Of a DNA stretch of 21,502 nucleotides, positions 8,223-21,244 are shown piece by piece. Location: assembly GCF_000341285.1 (NCBI RefSeq), contig NW_005178441.1, positions 1 through 21,502 on the forward strand. Direction: 5' to 3'. The position numbers and the translations under genes are program-made. The stretch is from Galdieria sulphuraria (taxonomy: Eukaryota; Rhodophyta; Bangiophyceae; Galdieriales; Galdieriaceae). Under the pieces are notes generated by a model that was given only the letters and a program-made list of their open reading frames with translations, searched no databases and was not told the DNA's origin. Each line of letters opens with the position of its first letter. The first letter of the stretch is position 1.

Positions 8223-8247
8223 CCCCTTACCCCACCCATTTTCCCCC
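8223..8247 (-). other. G-quadruplex motif (minus strand)
   Basis: Plus-strand C-runs of 4, 4, 3 and 5 are separated by 3, 1 and 5 bases. It lies at the same place in the repeat block as the motifs of array 3. Confidence 0.6.
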
Positions 8248-8357
8248 ATCGCAATTTTCCGACTCTCTCCCATTTCCTCCAATTTACCCATTCTTTCCCA
8301 GCCCACCACACAATGGCAATTTCAAATCACGATCGCCTTGGGGTTGGCCCCAATTGT

Positions 8358-8381
8358 CCCCTTTCCCCACCCATTTCCCCC
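8358..8381 (-). other. G-quadruplex motif (minus strand)
   Basis: Plus-strand C-runs of 4, 4, 3 and 5 are separated by 3, 1 and 4 bases. This is the second motif of array 4, one block after that at 8223-8247. Confidence 0.6.
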
Positions 8382-8624
8382 ATCGCAATTTCCCCTCCCA
8401 TCTCCAAATGGGCCCATTCTTTCCCACCCCACACCCATAATGGCAATTTTCAAATCAAAATTGCGCGGGCCCATTCCAAATCGGCCACTCTTTTCAAATT
8501 GCCCATCTTTCCCATTAGCAGAAAAAAGGCACTAAAAAGTGTGTATATTGGTGCTCAACATACTATGCAGTATCAGACCCAATGCAAACAACAAAATCTT
8601 CATTTTACAGTATACCAATATGAT

Positions 8625-9290
8625 TCAACAGTGGGTCAATTCTACAAACAATGGATTCAAACGAGTTAAGGTCAACGATCTGTTTAGAATTTGAAAGTAA
8701 TTTACAACTATGAGGAGAGAATTTGGGGATTTTCTCCCATTATGATTCTTGTCAAGCAATCTATCAACTAGATTGTCCTCTGTGTATTTAGATGAAAGAA
8801 TACTAGTACTCGTTGGTATTTCGTCTGCCAACTCTACTTGGGTAAATTCTTCCAATAAATCCATACGATCGTGAAGCAATCGGTGGTAAATAGACTATCA
8901 AGGATATATAAATACTATATGAACTAAAGTCTAGGGTATAATGACTCTTCTTATGGCTCAGAGAGTTTTATAGTGCCACGATAAAATATCTTGATGAGCT
9001 AAAAACTCATAATAGACGAACAACCCAGTGTGGTTCAAACAACCCATTTCATTCTATTAGCACTGTCCATTCCAGTCCGTATTCAACTGGAGAATGGACA
9101 ATGAAACTACTCCTATTTATATCACTTACCATAAATCTTTTTCTATGGTACAACTTGTCTTTGACTCGCAAAACAACAATCTGTCTAAAGTGAATTCTTA
9201 AATCACCTTTTTGAATAGAGTTGTTTTACTACTATTCCTCAAATACTGGAATCAGTCAATTTTACAAATCCAAGTGCGATTATTTGTCAC
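8625..9290 (-). mobile_element. Decayed PiggyBac-like transposase 3' part, copy 2
   Basis: Second copy of the coding remains at 3085-3570. Read leftwards on the minus strand from about 9210 it gives HFRQIVVLRVKDKLYHRKRF and then SDINRSSFIVHSPVEYGLE. This keeps the region's frame better than copy 1 but carries a five-base insertion right after the YGL, and the frame soon stops. A second open piece starts at an ATG (8864) and runs 79 codons to 8625. Its acidic, soluble start (MDLLEEFTQVELADEIPTS) and an RLLDKNH motif would fit the last part of a PiggyBac transposase before the cysteine-rich tail. The matching piece in copy 1 is interrupted by a stop. Homology beyond 9290 is doubtful. It could be another transposase class; that it is transposon-derived is inferred from its duplication. 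Confidence 0.4.
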
Positions 9291-11200
9291 TTGATAAGTA
9301 AATAGGCTAGTATGACACAAAACAATCAATCAATCAGTCATTGAATCAACACAAACCAAACTCAATTCTTCATCCATAAAGATAACAAAGAGTCTGCTGT
9401 GAAAGACACCTTGCCCTAGTAAAAGCTGTACCAGATGATCAACTTGAATTTGTAATAGCTTGACATAACAAAGATAAGAGACAACTTTTTCAACAAAAAA
9501 AGTAAACGGACATAACCATATGTCTCAGCATGACTTGAAGTACTAACAATCAAAGGTTAGGATCAAAGTACTTCTTCGTCAATCTTCTCAAGTTATTATG
9601 TGGATTCAAATCTTTCAAACAACATAATACCGAATGTTTGCGTTCTTCTACTTAAAATAGGAATGATCTCTAAAGTTGCCGAGCATACAGTTCCTTCCAA
9701 TACAGTTGAATTGCCTCATATGCCTACGATTCTGTAGTTAACTGCGACATTATGCATGTCCCACTATCAAATCAATCTTTGATGCAACAGATTGGTGACA
9801 ATTGGGTTCTATCAAAACTGTACAATTCATAGCCATAAAACTTGATAGTCTCAACGATACCAAGACTTTTATGAAACTAAGTTACAGGATGAGGTGTATG
9901 ATAAACAGTGAAAAAAAAAAAGTTAAGAGCAAACTCGAATAGCATATAATAGGTACTCTTCAAATACAGTATTCATAACAAGAATATGAATTCATATGGA
10001 CAAGGTCAAGTTGTTCTATTTGACACCAAGTTCAATACAAAAGTAGCCAGGATAGATTATAGTCCCTCTCTCTCTCTGCAACTTAAAATTGACCTTATCA
10101 CTAGGCATAAACGATATGATAACTACCAATAATATTCTATTTATGACCGACTCATGTAATTCTATAGGTAAGGCTCCGTGAACAAGAGAATGAATTGTGC
10201 TTAAAGAAACAAAGCACTACTCTTTATTCGACGACATTGATCTGATTCTATCAAGCAAAGGACTTGGTCTATTCTCTTTCTTAATAGCTGATTGCCTATT
10301 TTGTACAATTCCTTGTTTCCACTCAATTCAGTTTAAACTCGATTCAACATAGCCGAAACCTAATCTTTTGAAATCAGTTGAATTCAAACTGATTCCTGGA
10401 CACTAGCTCATATCACTATTGTCTCTAGTCTTGTCGATTAGATAGAAAAATATATCAGTTCCACAATTGAGGAATGTATTGAATTTACAATATAGGGAAG
10501 AGAGTGGTCGTAAAACACCAACCACAATTCTAAATAAATGAGGAACAACAGAAAAAATACTATGTTTACGACTCTTCGAGAACAATGCTGTAGTGAGAAG
10601 TGTTGTCCTATCTCTTCTAAGAGTTGCTGTTATTGTTGTCGTCAAATGTGCAAATCAAACAGTAAATTCTGCTTTTATAATCATTTCTAACAGTTCATAC
10701 CAAGACCTCAATGATTTTTGCAATGAAATAAATACAAGCAACTTTTTTCCGGTCAAGTTGTTGATTGACATAAGATTGATTAGTTTGAATCTAAAACCAT
10801 TCGTCGAGTATGATGAGGAGTGATATCCTTCTTCATGGAATAATAGTATCGAGATCAAGTTGAATCATAAACTTGATATTGTTCTTCCTATAAATGTTGT
10901 TGTATAAACTTTCCAAACTAGTAAAGAAAGTTACAGCTATATATAGCATAATATCTACAGAGATACAAATAACGATTCTGCAAGTACTATTGTATATCGT
11001 TGATGTTTCTGGTGAGAATCAAAGTCAAGACTTTTGGCTCATAATACTATCTCTGTAGTCTATTAAACTAGAAAGCCATTTCTTTCTTTTTTCACTTTAT
11101 ATCTTTCATCATACATTTTCTTCCAAAGCAAATTGGTGTATTTTTTTGATCAGCGAGTTGTATAAAAGTTGAAATGAAAGGAATCATTTCTTCATCTTGT
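9290..11200. other. No identifiable gene
   Basis: No long open frame and no recognisable domain. Faint protein-like stretches occur on both strands (minus about 10200-10320, plus 10593-10823) without motifs. Weak similarity to the region upstream of transposase copy 1 may exist near 9600 and 10190, but I would not rely on it. Otherwise I see only AT-rich DNA and short simple repeats. Confidence 0.4.
10066..10077. repeat. (CT)6 microsatellite
   Basis: Six CT dinucleotides in a row, in otherwise unremarkable AT-rich DNA. Confidence 0.7.
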
Positions 11201-12470
11201 ACAAAAACATTTCAACATGACAAGAGACTCAATAGCTTGTATCAGCGAGGTTACTTTGCTTCTTTTGCAGCTCGTTTGTGACCAATCTTCTACAAACTAG
11301 TTGAATCTTGTTCTAAATCAAATGATTCTATAGTCTATGAATAGTATAGTTTATCGCTGTCATACTTTATTTCAATTAAAGTTCAGTTTTTAGTGTTCAG
11401 TAATTGCAACTTTCTTGAAAAGATAAGATAACAAGAAAATGACTACTCTCCGACCAGTCAATAGAAACAAACAATGGACTTTTAGCACAATATCTTTATC
11501 AAAAAGAATAATGATTCTATGACGCAAGTTGAGCTTGGTGCCAAGGCAGTAAAAGGAGAACGTGCTCCACTAATACTGATAGGAATCAGTGAATTCAAAC
11601 AAAGTCTAATTGAATTCCGTACAGATACAAGGGTTGTAGAAGCTGATTGATTTATGCTCATCAATAGTAACATGTTCTCAATATTCCAGAAACACATTGT
11701 CATTCAATATGAAAGTCAATCCACACATGTACCTAAATTGAACTATGGTCGACCACCTTCCCAGTAGTGCACACAGCATACAAATATCAAGGGAAAATTG
11801 ATGCTTTGCTGTAATTCGGATTCTCACCTAGTGATTCTCAAATGAATTGATCTTCGACTTGATTTTAAGTAATCCAAATAATAGTCTGTAAATCATCCTT
11901 TTAGAGTAAGGACTAGAATACTTTAGGCAAATCAAGATAATCTTCAACAATTCGACTTTGGATCAAGCATACAGGGTACCTAAAGACCACATAGAACACT
12001 GCTTCGAATATAAAGACTCTGTACATACAACAGCAAGATTTCAAGTGCAAAGGTACAAAGTCTTCATCAACCCGACAACTAGTAGTCAATAAAGTATCAA
12101 TTCTACCTTAAAGAAGCCATCTTATACAAACACTATCTAACACAAACTCTATTGGATAACCCAATGTCCACATAATGACAATTCAACCAACTCTCTCGTA
12201 GATACACCTAAAAACATAACAACGTATATTAGTCTTAGTATCAAACAATTGATTTTGAATGGAAACGTTGATTCAACTTTTTGTGCATCGAGTTGTGCCG
12301 TTTATCTTGTCTAACACATTGACTCCATTCATTACTAAGGCTATATTTCAATAGCCAACTTTGAACGTTTCTAACAAGCAACGCATTAAAATTTGAATAC
12401 TTGAAATAAACTGACATCTGATTCCTGATTCTTGTCTGCCAAATGACTATACCTTACTCAGTAATGCATG

Positions 12471-12740
12471 GTTGGAACGAAATGATATAACTGAAGGTAC
12501 TTCAAAACAAGTAGTTATGAATTGAATCAAATACAGTTTGACATATTTATATCCGAACAAACAACTAGTCAATATCAAAATATATAAACCAGTAATAACA
12601 GATTCGTGGCACTGCAAAGATACATTACAATTCACCGCTTGAGTCGATTCGCGAAGCTATCTAAAATGAAACGATCAAGAAAAAGTATCCAGTATCGCAA
12701 ATAAAGTGCAAGCAATGAGAAGAATAATTCGGCATTCTGC
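12471..12740 (+). repeat. Diverged internal repeat, copy A
   Basis: Homologous to 13187-13456, 716 bases downstream. Landmarks fall at matching distances: an in-frame KQV (CAA at 12508), LESI (12638) and VQA (12706). From the CAA to VQA is 198 bases in both copies. Differences between LERNDITEGTSKQV here and LTRSDKIQSTLKQV in copy B include synonymous changes (CGA/AGA, AAA/AAG, GTA/GTG), so the duplication took place while the sequence coded for protein. Confidence 0.6.
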
Positions 12741-13186
12741 TACTACCAAGTTTTTCTCAAACCAAGTCTTCAGCTCCCTAGTCTTCTGTATCCTTAGTAA
12801 TAACACTACTATTAATACTATATGGAAAATAGTTTTTCTCGCGATAAGGACTAACTCGTTCGATAAATTCAGTATAATCTCTAAGAATTCAAAAGTTGAA
12901 TCAACCATAGAGGACATTTCACAAACTTATGAAACAGAATTTCATCTCCATGAGATATTCGACCAGTAATCAACAAATGACCAACTCCTACACAAAAAGT
13001 CATCTTAAATGAACAGTATCAAGAAATATCTTACTTTCTTTCCATTGAACAGTAAATCATTGAATTCAGTATACAATTCAAGTAATAGAAAACAGTAACC
13101 AGTTTCTAGATACGTTGAGAAGGAAGAAATCAAATAGACCTCTTCCTAAATATCGAATAGAATAATTGTGCCATATCCCATTGAGA

Positions 13187-13456
13187 TTTAACTAGAAGTG
13201 ATAAGATTCAGAGTACTCTAAAGCAAGTGACTATTACTTCCTTCAATACAGCTGTAACCAGAATAGTTTCGGATATCACACTAAAATAAGATTCAAACTC
13301 AACTCATCAATAGAAACAAGATATTCGTACGGCATAAATAAATTGTAATTTATCACTTGAATCAATTGTGATAATAGTCCAAAATTAAGAGGTGATGAAA
13401 ACCACCAAAGGTCGCGAAGAGGTTCAAGCATCAAAGGATACAATAAAAGTCCTGAA
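13187..13456 (+). repeat. Diverged internal repeat, copy B
   Basis: Partner of 12471-12740, with KQV (CAA at 13224), LESI (13356) and VQA (13422) in the same order and nearly the same spacing. In a 25-base comparison around LESI (TTACAATTCACC... against TTGTAATTTATC...) every one of the six differences is a transition. Confidence 0.6.
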
Positions 13457-13489
13457 ATTAGAACAAGACTATCAATTTATGTTTTGCTG

Positions 13490-15290
13490 CTACTTGTGTA
13501 AAAATCACAGAATTGGTTCTGCTTTTTGTGAGAATCAACCTCAAAATCTATAAATCATATGTCTGATATTCTAACCTGTGAAACCAGGGAAGCATTCATT
13601 TACTTCTTTTCTTTGAATTTCTTTCAACTGACCTTTCTATATTCTTTCATTGACAAGTATATACTATGTAAAACATAAATTTTTGTCTTTTATGACAATT
13701 CATAAGAATAAGGGAAAACAACCAGTATTTCGTGCTAAGACAAGTTGAATTTCTATTCCCAGCAAATCGTTTATAGAGAACTTTGGCTGCAATCTTGTCG
13801 CTTCTTCTTTGAATTTACATCATCCTGCAGTCTTTGAATACTACTTTCTATCATCTTCATCCCTTTTCTTGTAAGAACATATTACAACTCTAAAAAACAA
13901 GATTTTCACCATTCTACAATAACACCGATAAAGAAGAGAAAAAAAGAAATAGAGATATTATCTTATCCTTATCAGCTAGATGACTACTCCATATGAAGCT
14001 GGTCTTAGGGTCGAACAAGTAAGATGGAATTGTTCTGAAGCATAAATAGTCAAAAGGTGTAGTTTCGACATAAGAACAATACAATGTATCAAGATAAATC
14101 AGAAGTAGATTCAAGATCACAGAAAACAGTATGTTGTACACTTTCATGATACTGCAAGTTCACTTGTCAAAGATTACTTGATTCAACTGACGAAATTGTC
14201 TTGATTTGATCACTTGGAGTTACCCATCCCTACAAATGCAACACAACTATCACGGGACAAAGAGATTCTTTGTGATCGGGATTTCCAATGAAAAATGCTT
14301 CTGAAAAGTTTTTACGTCGACGTTTTTGGAAAAGAAATGATCACTAGTTGCTTCATCATACTATCATGAGATAACAAATAAGTTCGTTTCAAGAATCAAA
14401 AGATAAAGATTAGTCTCAAACAGGTAAAAGAAAAATCGACAGTCGACCAGTAAAGTAACTCGATACCCTAATTATTGTTCAAAATCAGGACCGTCTGTAG
14501 TCCTTCTGATAGTAAGGTACAGGAATAGTCATAAGTGTGCAAATAATGCCCTTTTAATTTGTAAAGTCAACAATACAATTTTCCTTTATGGTAAAAAATA
14601 GGTCAAATTCGTACTTTTATGACAAAAACTATTATTAATATTCCATGTAATACTAACCAATACACTATAACTTTCTCTTGTTGTTGTTGTTGTTGCTGTC
14701 TTTTTACAATTCCAAGTAAATAAAACAATTGCAATTCTCCGTTCATGCCAACAACGAAGAAAACAGTAAAAGATAGAAACACAAGTCATTCTCTTTGTAG
14801 AATTGATGACTATGCCATACTGTACTAGGCTCGGGCTCATATTTGTTGTTGTTGCTGTTCTGGTTGAATTTCAAGTAGTGGCGAATGGTTTGATTTTACT
14901 GCGATAATAGAAAAATGTTTTAGGTTCGTGTCAATGTATTTGCAAACTACTTTGTTCGTCTGCGTATGCTTTCTAGGAATTATCTACCAAAAGTTGGACT
15001 TTATTTTCAGAGTCAAACCAAAAACTCTAGTAGGACACGATGATATCAATGTGTGCACTTGTGTAATATTGTAGAAGTTCAACCAATCCTTCGTGAGTTT
15101 CTTTCAGAGCTACTTTGTATACTATCCAAACGCAACCTGTTTGCACAAAATGTTGTGTCTCCTTTTCGCTTTTTGACAGCTACAACTACCACCACTTTCA
15201 ACAGCATGACTTTCAGTGTGTTGGGAAAAAAACAGATCAGCAGCACTCTTGACACGCAAATACTGTTTCACACAAGTCGCCTTGTTTCCC
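13490..15290. other. No identifiable gene; two TTG microsatellites
   Basis: AT-rich sequence with no long frame and no known domain. The only distinct features are (TTG)n tracts at 14678-14698 and 14843-14859. Each is followed by a related tail (CAATTCCAAGTA and GAATTTCAAGTA), so the tract and tail look like a small duplication about 165 bases apart. A plus-strand open stretch near 15053-15358 overlaps a better minus-strand candidate and has no ATG at its start. Confidence 0.4.
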
Positions 15291-15292
15291 AT

Positions 15293-15508
15293 TCATACCG
15301 TACTACTAATGTTACCCTCCTTTCCAACTATATAAGGACCAAAGACGATTTGCAATAGATGCCTTTCAGAAACAACAGCAATACTAGTTCCAACTTTATC
15401 ACTATTACTACTAAAATATCGTTTTAGACATATTTCACCCTCGTAAAACCAATAATTCATAAAAACAAAGGCGTCTTTCAAAAACGGACTAATAGCTACA
15501 GTCGCCAT
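15293..15508 (-). CDS. Candidate small ORF, hypothetical protein
   Basis: This is an ATG-started frame of 71 codons (start MATVAISPFLKDAFVF, end near a GNISSTV). Its composition is protein-like and its third positions are T-rich, but I recognise no domain. The last codons run into ACG|GTATGAAT, which could be a splice donor: if it is, the same frame continues in open sequence on the left to about 15112. The ATG lies 69 bases from the divergent mini-ORF at 15578, so the two could share a promoter region. It may equally be a chance open frame or a fossil fragment. Confidence 0.2.
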   Translation of the reverse strand: MATVAISPFLKDAFVFMNYWFYEGEICLKRYFSSNSDKVGTSIAVVSERHLLQIVFGPYIVGKEGNISSTV

Positions 15509-15577
15509 CGTCACAACTTTTTACCCGAGTGAACACAACCAAGATTTTCAGCAGTGCTCTTTTGCTTGCTTTATTTC

Positions 15578-15743
15578 ATGGTTCCCGACAAGGTGAGTAT
15601 ATTTTGAACTAAAAACTTTTCCCTTGCTATAAAAAAGCAAGTCTATTCAGCTTTCGTTTTCAATAACTGTCAAACCTTATGGGTGTCGTTTTTCCGCAAA
15701 TAATATTTCAAAAGACATATTTGAATCAATAGAATTGATCTAA
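15578..15743 (+). CDS. Candidate two-exon mini-gene (35 codons)
   Basis: Exon 1 is ATGGTTCCCGACAAG (15578-15592), followed by a textbook donor GTGAGTAT. The intron is 58 nt (15593-15650), AT-rich, ending in TCTATTCAG. Exon 2 (15651-15743) continues in frame, LSFSITVKPYGCRFSANN..., to a TAA. Without splicing the frame stops within a few codons. The frame is also open for a few codons upstream of the ATG (VLFCLLYF), so this could be the 3' end of a longer gene whose earlier exons I cannot see. No domain recognised. The donor, acceptor, length and phase agree, but a chance match is possible. Confidence 0.3.
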
Positions 15744-16660
15744 AAGCACAACAATATAAACAATCATTAAAAATACCTTCCTACGTTATCCTGAGAAATG
15801 AATTTGTTTTACAAAAAGTGCAAATATCGTTTACACTCAAAAACCTGTTGCAAAGCTACAGACCGATTTCTCCATCGTAAAAAGAGTCATATAGAAGACA
15901 AAAAACTATCATACGGAAAGTAACGCTGTGTACTGAACAAAACACTCAACTGAGTGTCTGACTGGTTTCTTGTTCTTGCAAAATATCTTTGAAATATCAA
16001 CCTACAAAGACTGTTTCTCAACAACAGACTACAAGATTAGACTATCAACTGCTAATAAATACGCAAAACTGCTCTGAAACAATTATCAATAAAAATAAAA
16101 AAACTTGTGAGACAACTAGTTGACTAAAGTACCAACACTCAACCACAGCTTAAACTCCTTTGTCTTTGCTCTCTTCTCGACAACGCTAATCTCAAATTTC
16201 CATACAAGACCAAAAGTGAAATAAAAACAAGTGTTGCATAAAGTATATAAACTCCAAAGAGATAATAAAAGCTGTAAATACTAAAAAGAAACTACAGTCT
16301 ACACGGAACTCAGAGCTCAGGACTCGATGGATTGTTATAAAAGAAACACTTGCAGAGCTTAAAAAAAACGCAGATAATAGAAATTCACTTGTCCAACTAA
16401 AACAAACGAAGAATTCGCTTTAGAAATTAAAGTCGGAAAAGTTCCAATAGCAAACTTGAACCAGGTCCACAGCCTTGACAACACTCACTGAGCCTTCCCT
16501 TTCATCCAACAATCAAACCATTGTGTTCATTTCTAATTGGATTGTTATGAAAAGGATCGCTTTGTATTCTCTCCTTTCACTGGAAATATATTATTTTGAG
16601 TGACTAGTGAGTTTTATGAAAGAAAATATTCCACTTTGAGATATGTAAAAAGCTACTGGA
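15744..16660. other. No identifiable gene
   Basis: AT-rich sequence dense in stops in all frames. I see no domain, RNA gene or repeat worth naming. Confidence 0.4.
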
Positions 16661-16867
16661 ACAATAAGTGTGCTAGATACAATCAATCTCACATCTCAGT
16701 ACTATTGTGAAACGAGAAGAACAGTGTCGTATCAAAGATCCTTTCAACTCCCTAGCGACACTGTACCTTTTAACAGAGTTGAATTTGACAAAACTTATTT
16801 GTACGGTAAATTTCAGACTTTCTGTGACCCTATTTCGATAAAAAATCAAAAACGGGTTTTGCTATAA
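16661..16867 (+). pseudogene. Hsp20-like (small heat-shock protein) fragment
   Basis: The frame reads TISVLDTINLT, then a short polar stretch, then YQRSFQLPSDT, VEFDK and YLYGKF before a stop at 16865-16867. This follows the alpha-crystallin domain pattern: a strand with L-T-I, the F-x-R-S-F-x-L-P-x-x-V motif, then a V-x-A-x-x-x-x-G-x-L strand. Usual landmarks are missing: the LPG loop before the first strand is not visible, A and G of the last motif are replaced, and the C-terminal I-x-I/V is not evident. The frame opens after a stop and has no ATG at its head. The piece covers roughly half the domain, so I read it as a broken gene copy. Small heat-shock proteins are ATP-independent chaperones. 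A chance resemblance remains possible. Confidence 0.35.
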
Positions 16868-17292
16868 CCAGTTTTTGACTCGTTCTCGATCTGAGAACCT
16901 TTCTTTGTTGGTCACTCAAAATTTAGGAAAACTCAAAGGTGCAAAATGGTCATTTTCCAATTTCAATAACATTAACTCTGTTTGGCTTGCATTGTGAGAG
17001 CTAGAACCTTTCCTTCTATGCAAATACGCTCAAGGAACAATCTTTGTTCGATTACGAGTTATAAAGAAGAATAAATCGTATATTCAACCGTAGAATTGGA
17101 AAGTATACAGAGGACAGGACGATAATAAAAAACTGACCAAAGGTTGGGAATACTTTTGTCTATACACAAATTCGTACATAAACTACTTACGATAAGGAGG
17201 ATAGAGCCTCAAAAGTTACAAGGGCCACGCTTTGTTCTCTACACAAAGAACTTGTAGAGAGTTTTGACTGGTATAACAACAGTAAAAGTGGT

Positions 17293-17473
17293 GATGCTTT
17301 TGCTTCTCCTTGCACATATATTTCAAGATTCATCTTTCCTTTTTACTTTACCGAGAGGAGATGAAAGATTCTTATTTTTCCATTACTTCTCAATTTATAT
17401 TCTTTTCTTTTCACTAGGAGACGAAATTGATCCAATATATTTAAAAGAACAAGACCTTTACCAGTTTGGATAA
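17293..17473 (+). CDS. Candidate short ORF or terminal exon
   Basis: An ATG-started frame of 59 codons begins with a very hydrophobic leader (MLLLLLAHIFQ), which could pass for a signal peptide, and ends DEIDPIYLKEQDLYQFG. A strong acceptor (pyrimidine tract TTCTTTTCTTTTCACTAG) ends at 17417, so an alternative is that only 17418-17473 is coding, as the last exon of a gene. Function unknown. Either reading is weak. Confidence 0.2.
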
Positions 17474-19080
17474 TCACAATCACAATATCATTTGACATTT
17501 GACTCTGCAAAAGAATCAGATAACTTGTTTTATCTTATTCTGCTGAATATTGCTTGCGAGTTGACGATATTTTTATTCTTTGTAAAGCAACTTGGATAAA
17601 ACAGCGTTTCTCTTCTTTTTCAAGTTTGACTTTCCCTAGTAGAAATGAACATTCCTTCTATTGATAGACACGTTTTTTATACGAAACGTTGGGTTGTCTT
17701 TGATTCTCGTTACCAATATCCAAAAGGAAGCCTCTACTAGTGTACCCATCAGGTTATACTTCGCAAGAGTCTTCTTACAAGTGCCTAACGCAAGGAACTT
17801 TTGTATAGTGACTCACTTATTCAATGAGCTGATGGTTGAGAATGGAAGAAGAATAGGACTCAACTGGACAAATCGTTCTTTGAATTTGCAGAGCTTTTAA
17901 AAGTTTTCCCTTTTTTTATATTGGAAGAAATAATAGCCCTCTTGGAGTTATATCGTTCCTAAAGCAGCTTTGTACTTTTTATAGTTTGCTTTCTTGTATA
18001 TCTTTAAAAGTTGTGGTTTTTACAAAGTTTATCGTACAAAAGGATGCAACAAAAGAATTTAAACCTAAACAGTCATGTTTACCTTCAAAAACACCTCAAA
18101 TGTATAGTCGACTATTGAGGAGAAAGAATTCAACTATGATTCAAACGTGAGAAACGAGAAAAGAATCGATAGAATAGACTCAATTCGACTGAATTCAATT
18201 TTTCTTGAAAAATATATTTTCTCCTCTTAACAGAATCCACAGTATCAAATGCCACTATTTTCAGAGGAGAAAGAAACAGGAGTTATTGACTCTTACAGAA
18301 ATTGAGTATTGACGATACACTTGTGTGAGTCAATGTTGTTTCTGAGATTTGATAAAACCACGAGATATTTTGGATCCTTCTTAGCACATTTGTTTTGGTT
18401 TGTCTATTGCTATCATCAACTTTTGTAGCTTTAGTGATAAACTGCTACTTGTCATGATATCGTAAGAAAGGAATTTGATGATTGCTGAAAATAAAGCAGT
18501 GCTGTGCTTGCGGGTTTCTGCATTTCTACTAAATAATAATATTTCAACTGGAGCTTTTGAATAGACCACACAAGAGAATGACTTGGTTCATACACTAGTT
18601 CCGTGTTTCGAAATGAAGCAAAAGTGACGTAAAAACTATTCCATAAAATACAGAAAATCTAGAGAGAGACGTCTATGGAACAAATTCTTCATGAACAATC
18701 TATATTGCTCGGAACTCTCATGACTACTCTCGAAAATTCTGAAAGAAACTTTCTTATCTATGTGAGAATGGGCCATGTTCAATAGCTTTATACTCTCAAA
18801 GAGCATAAAAAACTTGTGAAATAAACATTGGCTTCCTTCCAATCCTTCTTGTACCCTATGAGAGTTACCATTATATTAGCATACGAGAATAAGAATATCG
18901 ATAGTTGAAAAAGCCATATTGATCGTTCTTGCCATAGTTCTAGTCATCTCAGTCCAAGCCATAAAGGGTATGACATAGTCATCAGTTGATAAAGAGAAGA
19001 AGTTGGATTGGTATCCTTTACTGTTTTCCTTGTTGTTGTTGTGACCGACAAACAAACAGTCAATCGTAAATTCATTTATA
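17474..19080. other. Gene-poor upstream flank of the NTPase gene
   Basis: No recognisable gene. Short open stretches exist on the plus strand (17661-17900) and on the minus strand (18381-18569, 18636-18842), none with an ATG at its head or a known motif; the two minus stretches could be exons of one decayed gene. Just before the NTPase frame there is an in-frame TAA (about 19067) and a short TTG tract near 19030. No convincing promoter element can be assigned. Confidence 0.4.
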
Positions 19081-19126: not shown

Positions 19127-21244
19127 ATGGCGAGTTTGGATGAAAAGTGGAAAGCTGTGGACAACTTTGAGTCTATTGTGGTAGATCGTGAAAGAGATGT
19201 TGTTCGAGTGACAAAAGAACTGTATGATCTTCATAGCAACAGAGAACAATTCAGGGGTGTAACAAGTAGTTGCAACTATCGCTTGACGATACCATTTGCC
19301 CCCCATCTCTTTGGCTCGGGCAAAACGACCTTTGCCCGAACCTCTTTGGAGTTGGTGCAAAGGTTTGGTGAAACTTCCCTGTCGACGTTTGCTTCAGACC
19401 CTTTGAGCAGAACCTTTTTGGAGAAGCTGAAAAGGGCTTCGTTGCTTTATGTGGATTTAAAGGAGTTGGAGCCAACTCGACCCATCGAGGAAAAACGAAA
19501 CCTGAAGTGGGCAGTGTACTATTTGTTAATCAAGGCTGCTTGTTTGCAATCAGGTCTTCCGCAACCAGACCCGGACGAATGTTTCAAGGAACTGAAACTT
19601 AGGAGTGATGCTTTGGTTCAGAAAATCCGTTCAATCTTAAACATTCCTTCCGATCAATATCTCCTTGTGGCATTTGACGAAGTTGGTGTCCTAGACGAAA
19701 GTCTCGACGAATTTCATTTCAAGAGAACCCATGACGGTAGAGTTCGACCTTACAACGACTTTTTCGGTATCATTAGTCAATTGTGCAAAGAACCCGACTT
19801 GTTTTTTATAGTTGTTGGGAAAAACAAGGGTTTAAGTATTAAGAATGATGTAGCTTTTGGGCTATCGAGAGTTATACTACATTTTATCCCTTTATCACCT
19901 TTGGACGCTTCCAGTATCGTTGAATTCCTTGAAAGAAGTCTTCTAAAGACACCTACTCAACAACCGGTTTGTAATGTCTTATGTAGTTCTTCATTTTCAG
20001 TAAATGAATTGGCAGACTCATTATTGGAATGTACAGGTGGAGTTCCTGGTTTGTTGACGCGTGCAGTAAATATGCTTTTGAATTATATAAAAACAAGAAA
20101 TAAGCCTTTCATATCGAAAGAAGAATGTTTGACATGTATGAACGACTACGATTTCCGAAGAATTTGCGCTGAACCATTTGTGGAACGAATATTGAATTTG
20201 GACGAAGATAGAAAAAGTGTTTTTGATATACTTTTAATGATGGCTCTTTATCGTATACCGTCTAAAGTAGATGATAGATTGACCTCGGAGTCCTATCTAT
20301 ATGATGCAGTCACTGAAATGGGACTATATCGATATCCTATTGACCAGAATACTTTCCAAATCCTAATTCCAAAAATATTTGTTGGAATCTTCAAGAACGA
20401 CCCTTCCATATCTTCTTTGGAAAAGATACTTCTCGAATCACTCGATGTAGAACCAGTAGATTGTTTCGTCTATTCAAAGTGTCGTGTATTTGAAGGAATT
20501 GTCGCTTTACGACTAGTTTTGATGTTGTCTTCAAAGAATCGAAATGAGTTGAGAGAATTGTTGTGTCAATTGTCTCCGATATGGAAACAAATGAAACTTC
20601 CAATCAGTACAATATCACCTATTCACTATATCAAGTCTGTTGTTAGTTCTAGAGAAACAAAAAGTGAATCGAACAAGAGTCGACGAACTTTTGCCAATAC
20701 TGAATGGAATAAGATTATTCGAGAGACACTTTATTTAGAGACTATTTACATTCCTTTGGACGCTACTTCTCATAGTCCTGATATTATATTCAAATTACAA
20801 TCTCCTGTGGAACCCAAAGTTCTTACTGTTGGAGTTGCATGTAAAGGACGTTGGAAGTCGGAAGGAATTGGCTGGTCAGATATTATAGATGAAGCCAAGA
20901 AATTTTTAGATCCTGTTTATGATCAAGTCTTATCCAGTGCAATGGATTATCATCATTGTATGCTTATTATCGTTAGTACAAAGTTATCATTGAATGCTTC
21001 TAATGAGCTGGGTAATCAGAGTCGTTGTTACTCCAGTGGAATGTTTATTGGAGGTGATTTGTTCAAAGTACCTGATAATTGTGAACTTGTTATTCTTTGT
21101 GAAAGAGATGTCCAAATGCTGATTGACGAAGAAATATTGAATGGACTTGAAAGAGCATTTCATGTTTCTCATAATCCTACTTTTTGGGATTTTGGATTAG
21201 ATTTACTTGATAGAATCCGTAACAGTTTCTTAAGTTGGCAATAA
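19127..21244 (+). CDS. P-loop NTPase fused to PD-(D/E)XK-like nuclease domain
   Basis: An intact, intronless frame of 705 codons. I chose the ATG at 19127 because it is the first in frame after the TAA near 19067. The N-terminal half is a P-loop NTPase: Walker A FGSGKTT at residues 62-68, a second strand LLYVDLKEL (about 106-114), Walker B YLLVAFDE at 178-185 with D184 and E185, a sensor-1-like strand FFIVVGKN (226-233), and a C-T-G-G-V-P-G motif at 302-308 like the GGxP of STAND and archaeal-type ATPases. A helical linker follows. Residues about 525-635 look like a restriction-endonuclease fold: a helix with E526/E533/E538, PDI with D552, a strand VGVACK ending in K573, then GWSDIIDEAKK. Known families with this order are the Crinkler/RHS-type proteins of eukaryotes, often linked to transposons, though archaeal-ATPase-like proteins are an alternative for the first half. 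Cellular role unknown. No signal peptide or membrane segment is evident. Confidence 0.85.
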   Translation: MASLDEKWKAVDNFESIVVDRERDVVRVTKELYDLHSNREQFRGVTSSCNYRLTIPFAPHLFGSGKTTFARTSLELVQRFGETSLSTFASDPLSRTFLEKLKRASLLYVDLKELEPTRPIEEKRNLKWAVYYLLIKAACLQSGLPQPDPDECFKELKLRSDALVQKIRSILNIPSDQYLLVAFDEVGVLDESLDEFHFKRTHDGRVRPYNDFFGIISQLCKEPDLFFIVVGKNKGLSIKNDVAFGLSRVILHFIPLSPLDASSIVEFLERSLLKTPTQQPVCNVLCSSSFSVNELADSLLECTGGVPGLLTRAVNMLLNYIKTRNKPFISKEECLTCMNDYDFRRICAEPFVERILNLDEDRKSVFDILLMMALYRIPSKVDDRLTSESYLYDAVTEMGLYRYPIDQNTFQILIPKIFVGIFKNDPSISSLEKILLESLDVEPVDCFVYSKCRVFEGIVALRLVLMLSSKNRNELRELLCQLSPIWKQMKLPISTISPIHYIKSVVSSRETKSESNKSRRTFANTEWNKIIRETLYLETIYIPLDATSHSPDIIFKLQSPVEPKVLTVGVACKGRWKSEGIGWSDIIDEAKKFLDPVYDQVLSSAMDYHHCMLIIVSTKLSLNASNELGNQSRCYSSGMFIGGDLFKVPDNCELVILCERDVQMLIDEEILNGLERAFHVSHNPTFWDFGLDLLDRIRNSFLSWQ

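What the first reader, a model, noticed from the sequence alone, without database searches (positions are those of the whole stretch)
19127..21244. Intact NTPase-nuclease fusion at the edge of a transposon graveyard
The sequence shows an uninterrupted 705-codon frame with Walker A (FGSGKTT), Walker B (YLLVAFDE), a GGVPG motif and a C-terminal PDI...ACK...E-x-x-K region. The order NTPase then restriction-endonuclease fold is that of eukaryotic Crinkler/RHS-type proteins, thought to have arisen from transposon-associated enzymes. About 19 kb of mostly dead DNA precedes it, yet this gene is whole, which implies selection or recent arrival. It may be a cargo or host-defence gene of a mobile element rather than a housekeeping gene.
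Basis: partly seen in the sequence, partly recalled or inferred. Interest (0 to 1): 0.7.

Follow-up and report, generated by a model that had tools for sequence, protein, structure and literature searches.

The report
Shuffled ATPase–nuclease-like gene beside telomeres
This intact gene belongs to a family repeated beside many chromosome ends of a hot-spring red alga (Galdieria); its copies have swapped segments with one another, and it looks like an ATP-driven switch joined to a possible DNA-cutting domain, which would recast a family so far described as an imported archaeal heat-tolerance ATPase.

Summary
The gene is no isolated survivor: one search finds 69 matching stretches (about 60 loci) in the same genome and a distant sister family C. 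Of 61 A/B stretches on contigs over 80 kb, 57 lie within 40 kb of an end and all 57 point inward. Upstream DNA is a duplicated block, 87-91% identical, in whole or part, at 16 other places. The host is probably Galdieria, and the family fits its disputed 'archaeal STAND ATPases'. New here: (1) four 40-residue cassettes lie between Walker A and B; two are shared at 96-100% DNA identity by copies about half alike elsewhere, so copies recombine; (2) D552, K573 and E589 recur in family C at 19-20% identity, suggesting a PD-(D/E)XK nuclease with a displaced glutamate. The fold is unproven: single-sequence models failed, no nuclease, Crinkler or RHS family matched, and the DUF234 comparison is at chance. 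'Transposon graveyard' is not supported.

The parts
19127..21244 (+). Intact 705-codon gene, type A member of the subtelomeric family
   Evidence: ATG start and MASLDEKW kept in the 7 type A rows aligned
19310..19330 (+). Walker A, FGSGKTT, residues 62-68
   Evidence: FGxGK kept in type C
19523..19642 (+). Exchangeable cassette, residues 133-172; this copy carries the commonest of four classes
   Evidence: 36-50% DNA identity between classes in three comparisons, 96-100% within a class across type A and B backbones
19658..19681 (+). Walker B-like YLLVAFDE, residues 178-185
   Evidence: QYL..DE kept in type C
19691..19744 (+). Second exchangeable segment, residues 189-206 (DESLDEFHFKRTHDGRV versus DTKATLFELEKNDKGVV, and at least one further form)
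20036..20050 (+). GGVPG, residues 304-308 (TGG[VI]P in types A, B and C, with one TGSVP)
20702..20980 (+). Putative PD-(D/E)XK-like core, residues 526-618; helix-strand-strand-strand-helix-strand order in the low-confidence model of the C-terminal half (the full-length model shows two strands before the long helix)
   Evidence: (pLDDT 35, secondary structure only)
20780..20782 (+). D552 of the PD motif
   Evidence: D in 45 of 46 readable A/B copies, E in one; D in both type C rows
20843..20845 (+). K573 (A-C-K; S-F-K in type C)
   Evidence: 46 of 46
20891..20893 (+). E589, proposed displaced catalytic glutamate in the following helix
   Evidence: E in 45 of 46, D in one
9000..18900 (+). Upstream subtelomeric block, duplicated in whole or part elsewhere (only this part of 1-19 kb was searched)
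   Evidence: 26 stretches; the 16 longest (3.9-9.8 kb) have 87-91% identity
213..2843 (+). C-rich repeats; further copies at about 8223-8493
   Evidence: same motif 1.4-2.9 kb inside contigs C76 and C32, which begin with telomere repeats

Best explanation
The gene is one copy of the large subtelomeric gene family of the red alga Galdieria that has been called 'archaeal STAND ATPases'. It most likely encodes a P-loop (STAND/AAA-like) NTPase switch fused to a C-terminal nuclease-type domain of the PD-(D/E)XK superfamily, with active site P-D552...K573...E589 and the glutamate displaced into the following helix. NTP binding and oligomerisation would gate cutting or binding of nucleic acid in the nucleus. 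Shown: chromosome-end location, inward orientation, co-duplication with an upstream block, exchange of segments among copies, and conservation of the motif residues. Inferred: identity with the published family, the nuclease fold, nuclear action, and NTP gating. I think the family is kept as a conflict-type (defence or self-promoting) enzyme, diversified by ectopic recombination between chromosome ends, rather than as a heat-tolerance ATPase. The location and recombination part is about 0.9 likely, the NTPase-nuclease part about 0.55, the conflict role about 0.4.
For: Copies: 69 matching stretches. Placement: of 61 stretches on contigs over 80 kb, 57 within 40 kb of an end, all 57 inward (stretches, not genes); type C 20 of 23 within 40 kb, all 20 inward. 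Contigs C76, C16 and C32 start with telomere repeats and carry a copy 13-23 kb further in, pointing away from them. Block duplication. Segment exchange at DNA level. pN/pS 0.25-0.48 by region over 45 pairs of 10 intact type A copies. Residues P551, K573 and E589 invariant and D552 in 8 of 9 rows that include two type C proteins at 19-20% identity. Helix-strand-strand-strand-helix-strand order in one low-confidence model. Published match in placement and copy number: 211 genes, said to lie next to every telomere on unpublished reads (PMC6629376, passages); duplicated in subtelomeres (PMC9812998, passages).
Against: Both structure models have pLDDT 35, and the full-length one lacks the middle strand. 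Foldseek with the C-terminal model gave no match at E <= 0.001, and its best ranks were acetyl-CoA carboxylase. No nuclease family or nuclease structure matched; the sub-threshold hits were to other things, such as Cas9_PI E 0.057, phage_P_loop E 0.071 and Nup62 E 0.4. PHROGs was tried with two proteins only. The C-terminal half scores no better than chance against archaeal DUF234 (15 of 60 shuffles). The residue two before K573 is A or S, not E/D, so the textbook motif is not met. In type B, residues 326-520 show pN/pS 0.93. The 5' flank (94-97%) is at least as conserved as third codon positions (93-96%), so gene conversion blurs the selection test. No 074W protein was available for direct comparison.
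Confidence: 0.55

Rival explanations
1. It is an archaeal ATPase acquired by horizontal transfer and expanded for life in heat, as published for Galdieria.
For: Weak match to PF01637 ATPase_2, E 0.03 full length and 0.0046 for the N-terminal half. The profile comparison puts Walker B to GGxP in register, and 1 of 60 shuffles reaches the N-half score. Stated in PMC9812998 (passages).
Against: 14.6-17.2 bits against a curated cut-off of 33.2; a genome-wide PF01637 scan, which scores only its best candidates, does not list the family; hhalign probability 0.65 and 0.97%. PMC6629376 (passages) reports no hits outside the species and disputes the transfer. The heat role does not explain segment exchange or the conserved C-terminal half.
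Confidence: 0.12
2. It is a self-spreading chromosome-end gene: the encoded enzyme nicks or cuts subtelomeric DNA so that repair copies the block, comparable in setting to yeast Y' helicase genes (recalled).
For: End location, co-duplication with the block, uniform orientation, mosaic copies.
Against: The same pattern arises from passive ectopic recombination without any enzyme; no target site was looked for; no activity shown.
Confidence: 0.25
3. It is an intracellular defence or conflict receptor: a STAND switch whose exchanged cassettes tune recognition or partner choice and whose C-terminal domain attacks nucleic acid.
For: Cassette diversity between Walker A and B; NTPase plus nuclease-like layout as in Crinkler-RHS proteins; SAM-like tail on type C, SAM_2 E 0.004 and 0.15, below its cut-off.
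Against: Variation lies inside the NTPase half, not in a separate sensor; no trigger known to me; no PADLOC match.
Confidence: 0.3
4. The C-terminal half is not a nuclease but an unrelated adaptor or regulatory fold.
For: No fold or family match; A/S instead of E/D before K573.
Against: D, K and E are among the few charged residues kept between types at 19-20% identity; the secondary-structure order fits.
Confidence: 0.35
5. The copies are passengers of subtelomeric duplication without function.
For: 4 of 15 near-full-length type A rows carry a stop and many fragments exist; type B residues 326-520 have pN/pS 0.93.
Against: 11 of 15 have none, whereas simulated neutral decay (substitutions only) leaves no stop in 10.8%, 1.7% or 1.35% of runs at 3, 5 or 6% divergence; type A pN/pS 0.25-0.48.
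Confidence: 0.1

Closest known systems
'Archaeal STAND ATPases' of Galdieria sulphuraria (Schonknecht 2013, recalled; discussed in PMC6629376 and PMC9812998, passages)
   Same: Genus, multicopy expansion, position next to telomeres, weak ATPase_2 signal, no relatives found elsewhere
   Different: The passages I read do not describe the C-terminal D/K/E motif, the SAM-tailed sister type or segment exchange; no 074W sequence was available to align
Crinkler-RHS (CR) proteins, NTPase + HTH + REase class (PMC5289972, passages)
   Same: NTPase followed by a nuclease-like motif; subtelomeric multicopy setting recalls trypanosome RHS genes (recalled)
   Different: No header domain, no Pfam Crinkler/RHS match, displaced glutamate, HTH not tested
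Archaeal ATPase_2-DUF234 proteins (Methanocaldococcus plasmid and relatives)
   Same: DRE box, Walker A/B, G(G)xP, then a nuclease-type C-terminus (DUF234 as PD-(D/E)XK is recalled)
   Different: 439 against 705 residues; archaeal E-x-K (mostly EVKW) against A/S-x-K; C-terminal halves not alignable above chance
Restriction enzymes with displaced glutamate such as Cfr10I, Bse634I, NgoMIV (recalled)
   Same: PD...K...E order with a small residue in place of the E of ExK
   Different: No sequence match; spacing differs; activity unknown

Membership tests
Galdieria subtelomeric 'archaeal STAND ATPase' family | Host is Galdieria | tested here: met
   Repeat CCCTAA(A)TAAA on 6 contigs, at the very start of C16, C32 and C76 and in reverse on C73, C82 and C88, as printed for G. 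partita (PMC13353863, passages); 18S about 1827 nt; Chloroa_b-bind matches, some with stops inside as introns would give. Species not determined.
Galdieria subtelomeric 'archaeal STAND ATPase' family | Copies beside chromosome ends | tested here: met
   57 of 61 and 20 of 23 placeable stretches within 40 kb of a contig end
Galdieria subtelomeric 'archaeal STAND ATPase' family | Sequence identity to the published 074W proteins | not testable with these tools
   I had no 074W proteome
Crinkler-RHS (CR) proteins | P-loop NTPase domain | tested here: met
   Walker A, Walker B and GGxP kept in types A, B and C; motif level only
Crinkler-RHS (CR) proteins | Helix-turn-helix between NTPase and REase | not tested
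   No usable model of residues 330-520
Crinkler-RHS (CR) proteins | REase-superfamily C-terminal domain | tested here: inconclusive
   Motif residues and element order fit; no fold or family match
Crinkler-RHS (CR) proteins | N-terminal header domain | tested here: not met
   19 residues precede the DRE box that I take as the start of the NTPase; no Pfam header match
Crinkler-RHS (CR) proteins | Match to Pfam Crinkler or RHS models | tested here: not met
   that such models are in Pfam is recalled
PF01637 ATPase_2 / DUF234 archaeal ATPases | ATPase_2 score above the curated cut-off | tested here: not met
   14.6 and 17.2 bits against 33.2
PF01637 ATPase_2 / DUF234 archaeal ATPases | DUF234 C-terminal domain | tested here: not met
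   No Pfam match; 15 of 60 shuffles reach the profile score
PD-(D/E)XK nucleases | Canonical (E/D)-x-K | tested here: not met
   A in 46 of 46 A/B copies, S in the two type C rows
PD-(D/E)XK nucleases | Variant PD...K...E with displaced glutamate in the core fold | tested here: inconclusive
   Residues conserved; geometry not testable on pLDDT 35 models

The most novel reading that the evidence does not exclude
The disputed 'archaeal heat ATPases' at the chromosome ends of Galdieria are a combinatorial NTPase-nuclease system: shuffling a small set of cassettes between Walker A and Walker B by ectopic conversion among about 100 subtelomeric copies creates variants of an NTP-gated nuclease, either for recognition of invaders or for the block's own spread along chromosome ends.
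Probability: 0.25. Interest if true: 0.85.

Novelty: new variant of a known kind. Interest (0 to 1): 0.6.

Why it matters
PMC6629376 states that this kind of gene made up 211 of 335 claimed horizontally acquired genes in Galdieria sulphuraria 074W; it is still cited as archaeal-derived adaptation (PMC9812998), while its origin and function are contested (passages). If it is instead an NTPase-nuclease family that recombines segments at chromosome ends, a well-known case of eukaryotic gene transfer changes meaning. A free-living alga would then have a system resembling trypanosome RHS genes and Crinkler proteins in layout and setting. The D552/K573/E589 and cassette predictions can be tested directly.

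Tried and rejected
Prokaryotic or viral relatives by sequence: none in viral contigs or genome contigs, plasmids or phages; none in the two archaeal genomes reached through loci (uninformative by the tool's own note). Rozella was my first guess for the host and was dropped after the light-harvesting genes and the telomere repeat. Membership in the archaeal ATPase_2-DUF234 family was tested with a 13-row alignment and not supported. Single-sequence structure models were useless except for element order. Foldseek with the poor C-terminal model: no E <= 0.001; of the 50 rows listed, ranks 14, 20, 22, 24, 33, 34, 48 and 50 are nucleases, R2 or defence proteins that, from memory, carry PD-(D/E)XK domains, while ranks 1-8 are acetyl-CoA carboxylases; I give it no weight. 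The SAM-like tail of type C has no PDB match of note (best E 0.75).

Row handling: for type C I placed 41 of the 78 rows, chosen by hand as the long matches; 37 shorter, secondary or more broken rows were left out, among them C64:5565-6506, which is of similar length. 23 of the 41 lie on contigs over 80 kb of known length. In one search, 4 of the 69 rows had no known contig length and 4 lie on contigs of 10-16 kb, where end and orientation mean little; some of the 61 counted are pieces of one gene. The motif count uses a search pattern that already demands part of the motif, so it is biased upward; the D, A and K positions themselves were left free. The cassette count took only copies with 45 unbroken residues before IPSDQYL, in the window and 40 loci. 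The pN/pS values use 10 type A and 6 type B copies chosen as intact, which favours constraint.

Full report
Observation. The frame at 19127-21244 (+) is open for 705 codons and holds the motifs named. A TTG-start reading frame begins 45 bases earlier, but the ATG at 19127 is kept in the type A rows.

Host. The genome holding the window is 12.05 Mb in 102 contigs. It has 18S genes of about 1827 nt and chlorophyll-binding protein matches, some with stops inside as introns would give. Six contigs carry the repeat CCCTAA(A)TAAA (the reversed control pattern matched 0 times): at the very start of C16, C32 and C76, and on the other strand of C73, C82 and C88, whose lengths I did not retrieve. PMC13353863 (passages) lists this repeat for Galdieria partita. 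I take the host to be a Galdieria; the species is open.

Family and place. A search with the protein gives 69 stretches, about 60 loci after I merged pieces of one gene by hand. Of 65 on contigs of known length, 61 lie on contigs above 80 kb; 57 of these are within 40 kb of an end and all 57 are transcribed away from that end. The other 4 are inside contig C1. Contig C76 starts with telomere repeats and has a type A copy at 13741-15855 (+); C16 and C32 also start with telomere repeats and have type C copies at 20.0 and 22.9 kb (+). The window itself has no telomere repeat. Its C-rich motif at 228, 1409 and 2451 recurs in C76 at 1363, 1458 and 2503; by that one comparison its first base may lie roughly 1 kb from the telomere. 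Right of 21502 the scaffold reads N for at least 9.9 kb.

Upstream DNA. 9000-18900 matches 26 stretches of the genome. The 16 longest (3.9-9.8 kb) have 87-91% identity; one lies inside contig C29, the others at contig ends or on contigs whose coordinates suggest short length, including C82 and C88, which carry telomere repeats. RVT_1 matches one place in the readable genome. Other transposon families were not searched, and 1-9 kb was examined only for repeats.

Types and recombination. Six type A copies are 86-92% identical to the window protein. Seven copies with a type B C-terminal half are 48-61%; in C5, C11, C13 and C51 such a copy follows a type A copy by about 0.6 kb further inward. Type C is represented here by two proteins of 827 and 831 residues aligning over their full length at 19-20%, with a SAM-like tail (E 0.004 and 0.15, below the Pfam cut-off). 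Between Walker A and Walker B, 25 readable copies fall into four cassette classes of 11, 1, 7 and 6 members. In three comparisons of different classes with the window copy (L023, L024, L037) the cassette has 36-50% DNA identity, while the neighbouring windows are mostly 80-99%. For two classes, the cassette is 96-100% identical at the DNA level in copies whose C-terminal halves are only about half alike: the window copy against L022 and L038, and L023 against L037. A second segment, residues 189-206, has at least two forms; cassette class 1 occurs with both. This is direct evidence of past segment exchange between copies at different chromosome ends. I found no report of it: searches of the held library for Galdieria with 'gene conversion' (listing only), 'archaeal ATPase' (18), 'subtelomeric' (19), 'Crinkler' (22), 'retrotransposon hot spot' (62), STAND/nuclease terms (63) and a six-term search (101) showed nothing on it. 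Of the main papers only passages were read.

Selection. Over 45 non-independent pairs of 10 intact type A copies, pN/pS is 0.25 to 0.48 by region, with the cassette region highest. Over 15 pairs of 6 type B copies it is 0.35 to 0.56, except 0.93 for residues 326-520, where differences are few (pS 0.027). In 8 of 8 comparisons with the window copy (residues 326-705), third codon positions are less alike than second ones, and in 7 of 8 less alike than first ones. But the 5' flank is at least as conserved (94-97%) as third positions (93-96%), so gene conversion makes this test moderate only. Of 15 near-full-length type A rows 11 have no stop; simulated neutral decay, substitutions only, at 3, 5 and 6% leaves no stop in 10.8, 1.7 and 1.35% of runs.

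The C-terminal half. Modelled alone, its element order is H526-534, strands 536-540, 553-558 and 565-574, H583-602, strand 609-618, which is that of a restriction-endonuclease core (recalled). The full-length model shows only two strands before the long helix, and both models have pLDDT 35. In the nine-row alignment, P551, K573, E589, K592 and F593 are invariant and D552 is D in 8 of 9. In 46 readable A/B copies D552 is D in 45 and E in one, K573 is K in 46, E589 is E in 45 and D in one. The position that should hold E or D two residues before the lysine is A in 46 of 46, and S in the two type C rows. The pattern is therefore not the textbook PD-(D/E)XK but resembles the displaced-glutamate variant (recalled: Cfr10I, NgoMIV). 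No family, PDB or fold search confirms it.

Relation to archaeal ATPases. PF01637 scores 14.6 bits full length and 17.2 for the N-half, against a cut-off of 33.2; 7 of 14 paralogues match it at E <= 5, at best E 0.0068. Against 13 archaeal ATPase_2-DUF234 proteins, hhalign aligns only the Walker B to GGxP part (probability 0.65 and 0.97%). With column shuffles as control, the N-half score is reached in 1 of 60 and the C-half score in 15 of 60; the two cross-comparisons give 14 and 31 of 60. So a common NTPase superfamily is plausible, a shared full-length ancestor with DUF234 proteins is not shown, and the label 'archaeal' rests on little. This agrees with PMC6629376 (passages), which found no hits outside the species and noted, from unpublished reads, that the genes lie next to every telomere, and qualifies PMC9812998 (passages), which treats them as archaeal-derived and adaptive.

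Conclusion. The gene is real, probably under selection, and most likely a member of a described but unexplained Galdieria family. The new elements are the segment exchange, the distant sister type C and the conserved D/K/E motif. The most likely working model is an NTP-gated nucleic-acid enzyme diversified by recombination at chromosome ends; the nuclease step is the weakest link.

Noticed in passing
L009, L010, L012, L013 (C19:180172-181998:+, C13:9484-11310:-, C4:84-1911:-, C41:8159-9986:-): 18S rRNA genes also lie within about 12 kb of contig ends on four long contigs and point outward, the opposite of the ATPase family; a fifth is on the 10 kb contig C100.
   Followed up: no
C1:54-56 kb and 182-192 kb, C29:54.8-65.2 kb, C28:79.2-80.5 kb: Islands of subtelomeric genes or block DNA inside contigs, all on the + strand; fused chromosome ends or assembly misjoins.
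   Followed up: no
L045, L047-L049 (C1, C61, C28, C38); also C20:5762-7774: A type B subgroup matches residues 13-67 and 151-700 but not the stretch between, which begins at Walker A; in the loci read, the downstream frame opens only after a stop between the pieces, so intron, deletion or pseudogene.
   Followed up: partly
L081:609-3089, L082:679-3171: Type C proteins end in a SAM-like domain (SAM_2 E 0.004 and 0.15, below cut-off), absent from types A and B.
   Followed up: partly
window:21245-21400: The 3' flank of the window copy departs from all 8 other copies compared directly after the stop codon and rejoins two of them about 157 bases on.
   Followed up: partly
window right edge, C35:21503 onward: Scaffold gap or withheld stretch of at least 9.9 kb of N immediately after the window; the next copy inward, if any, is unseen.
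   Followed up: no
L034, L053, L054, L062: Scattered single ambiguous bases in copies at contig ends, perhaps collapsed or low-quality repeats; some apparent stops or frameshifts may be assembly errors.
   Followed up: no
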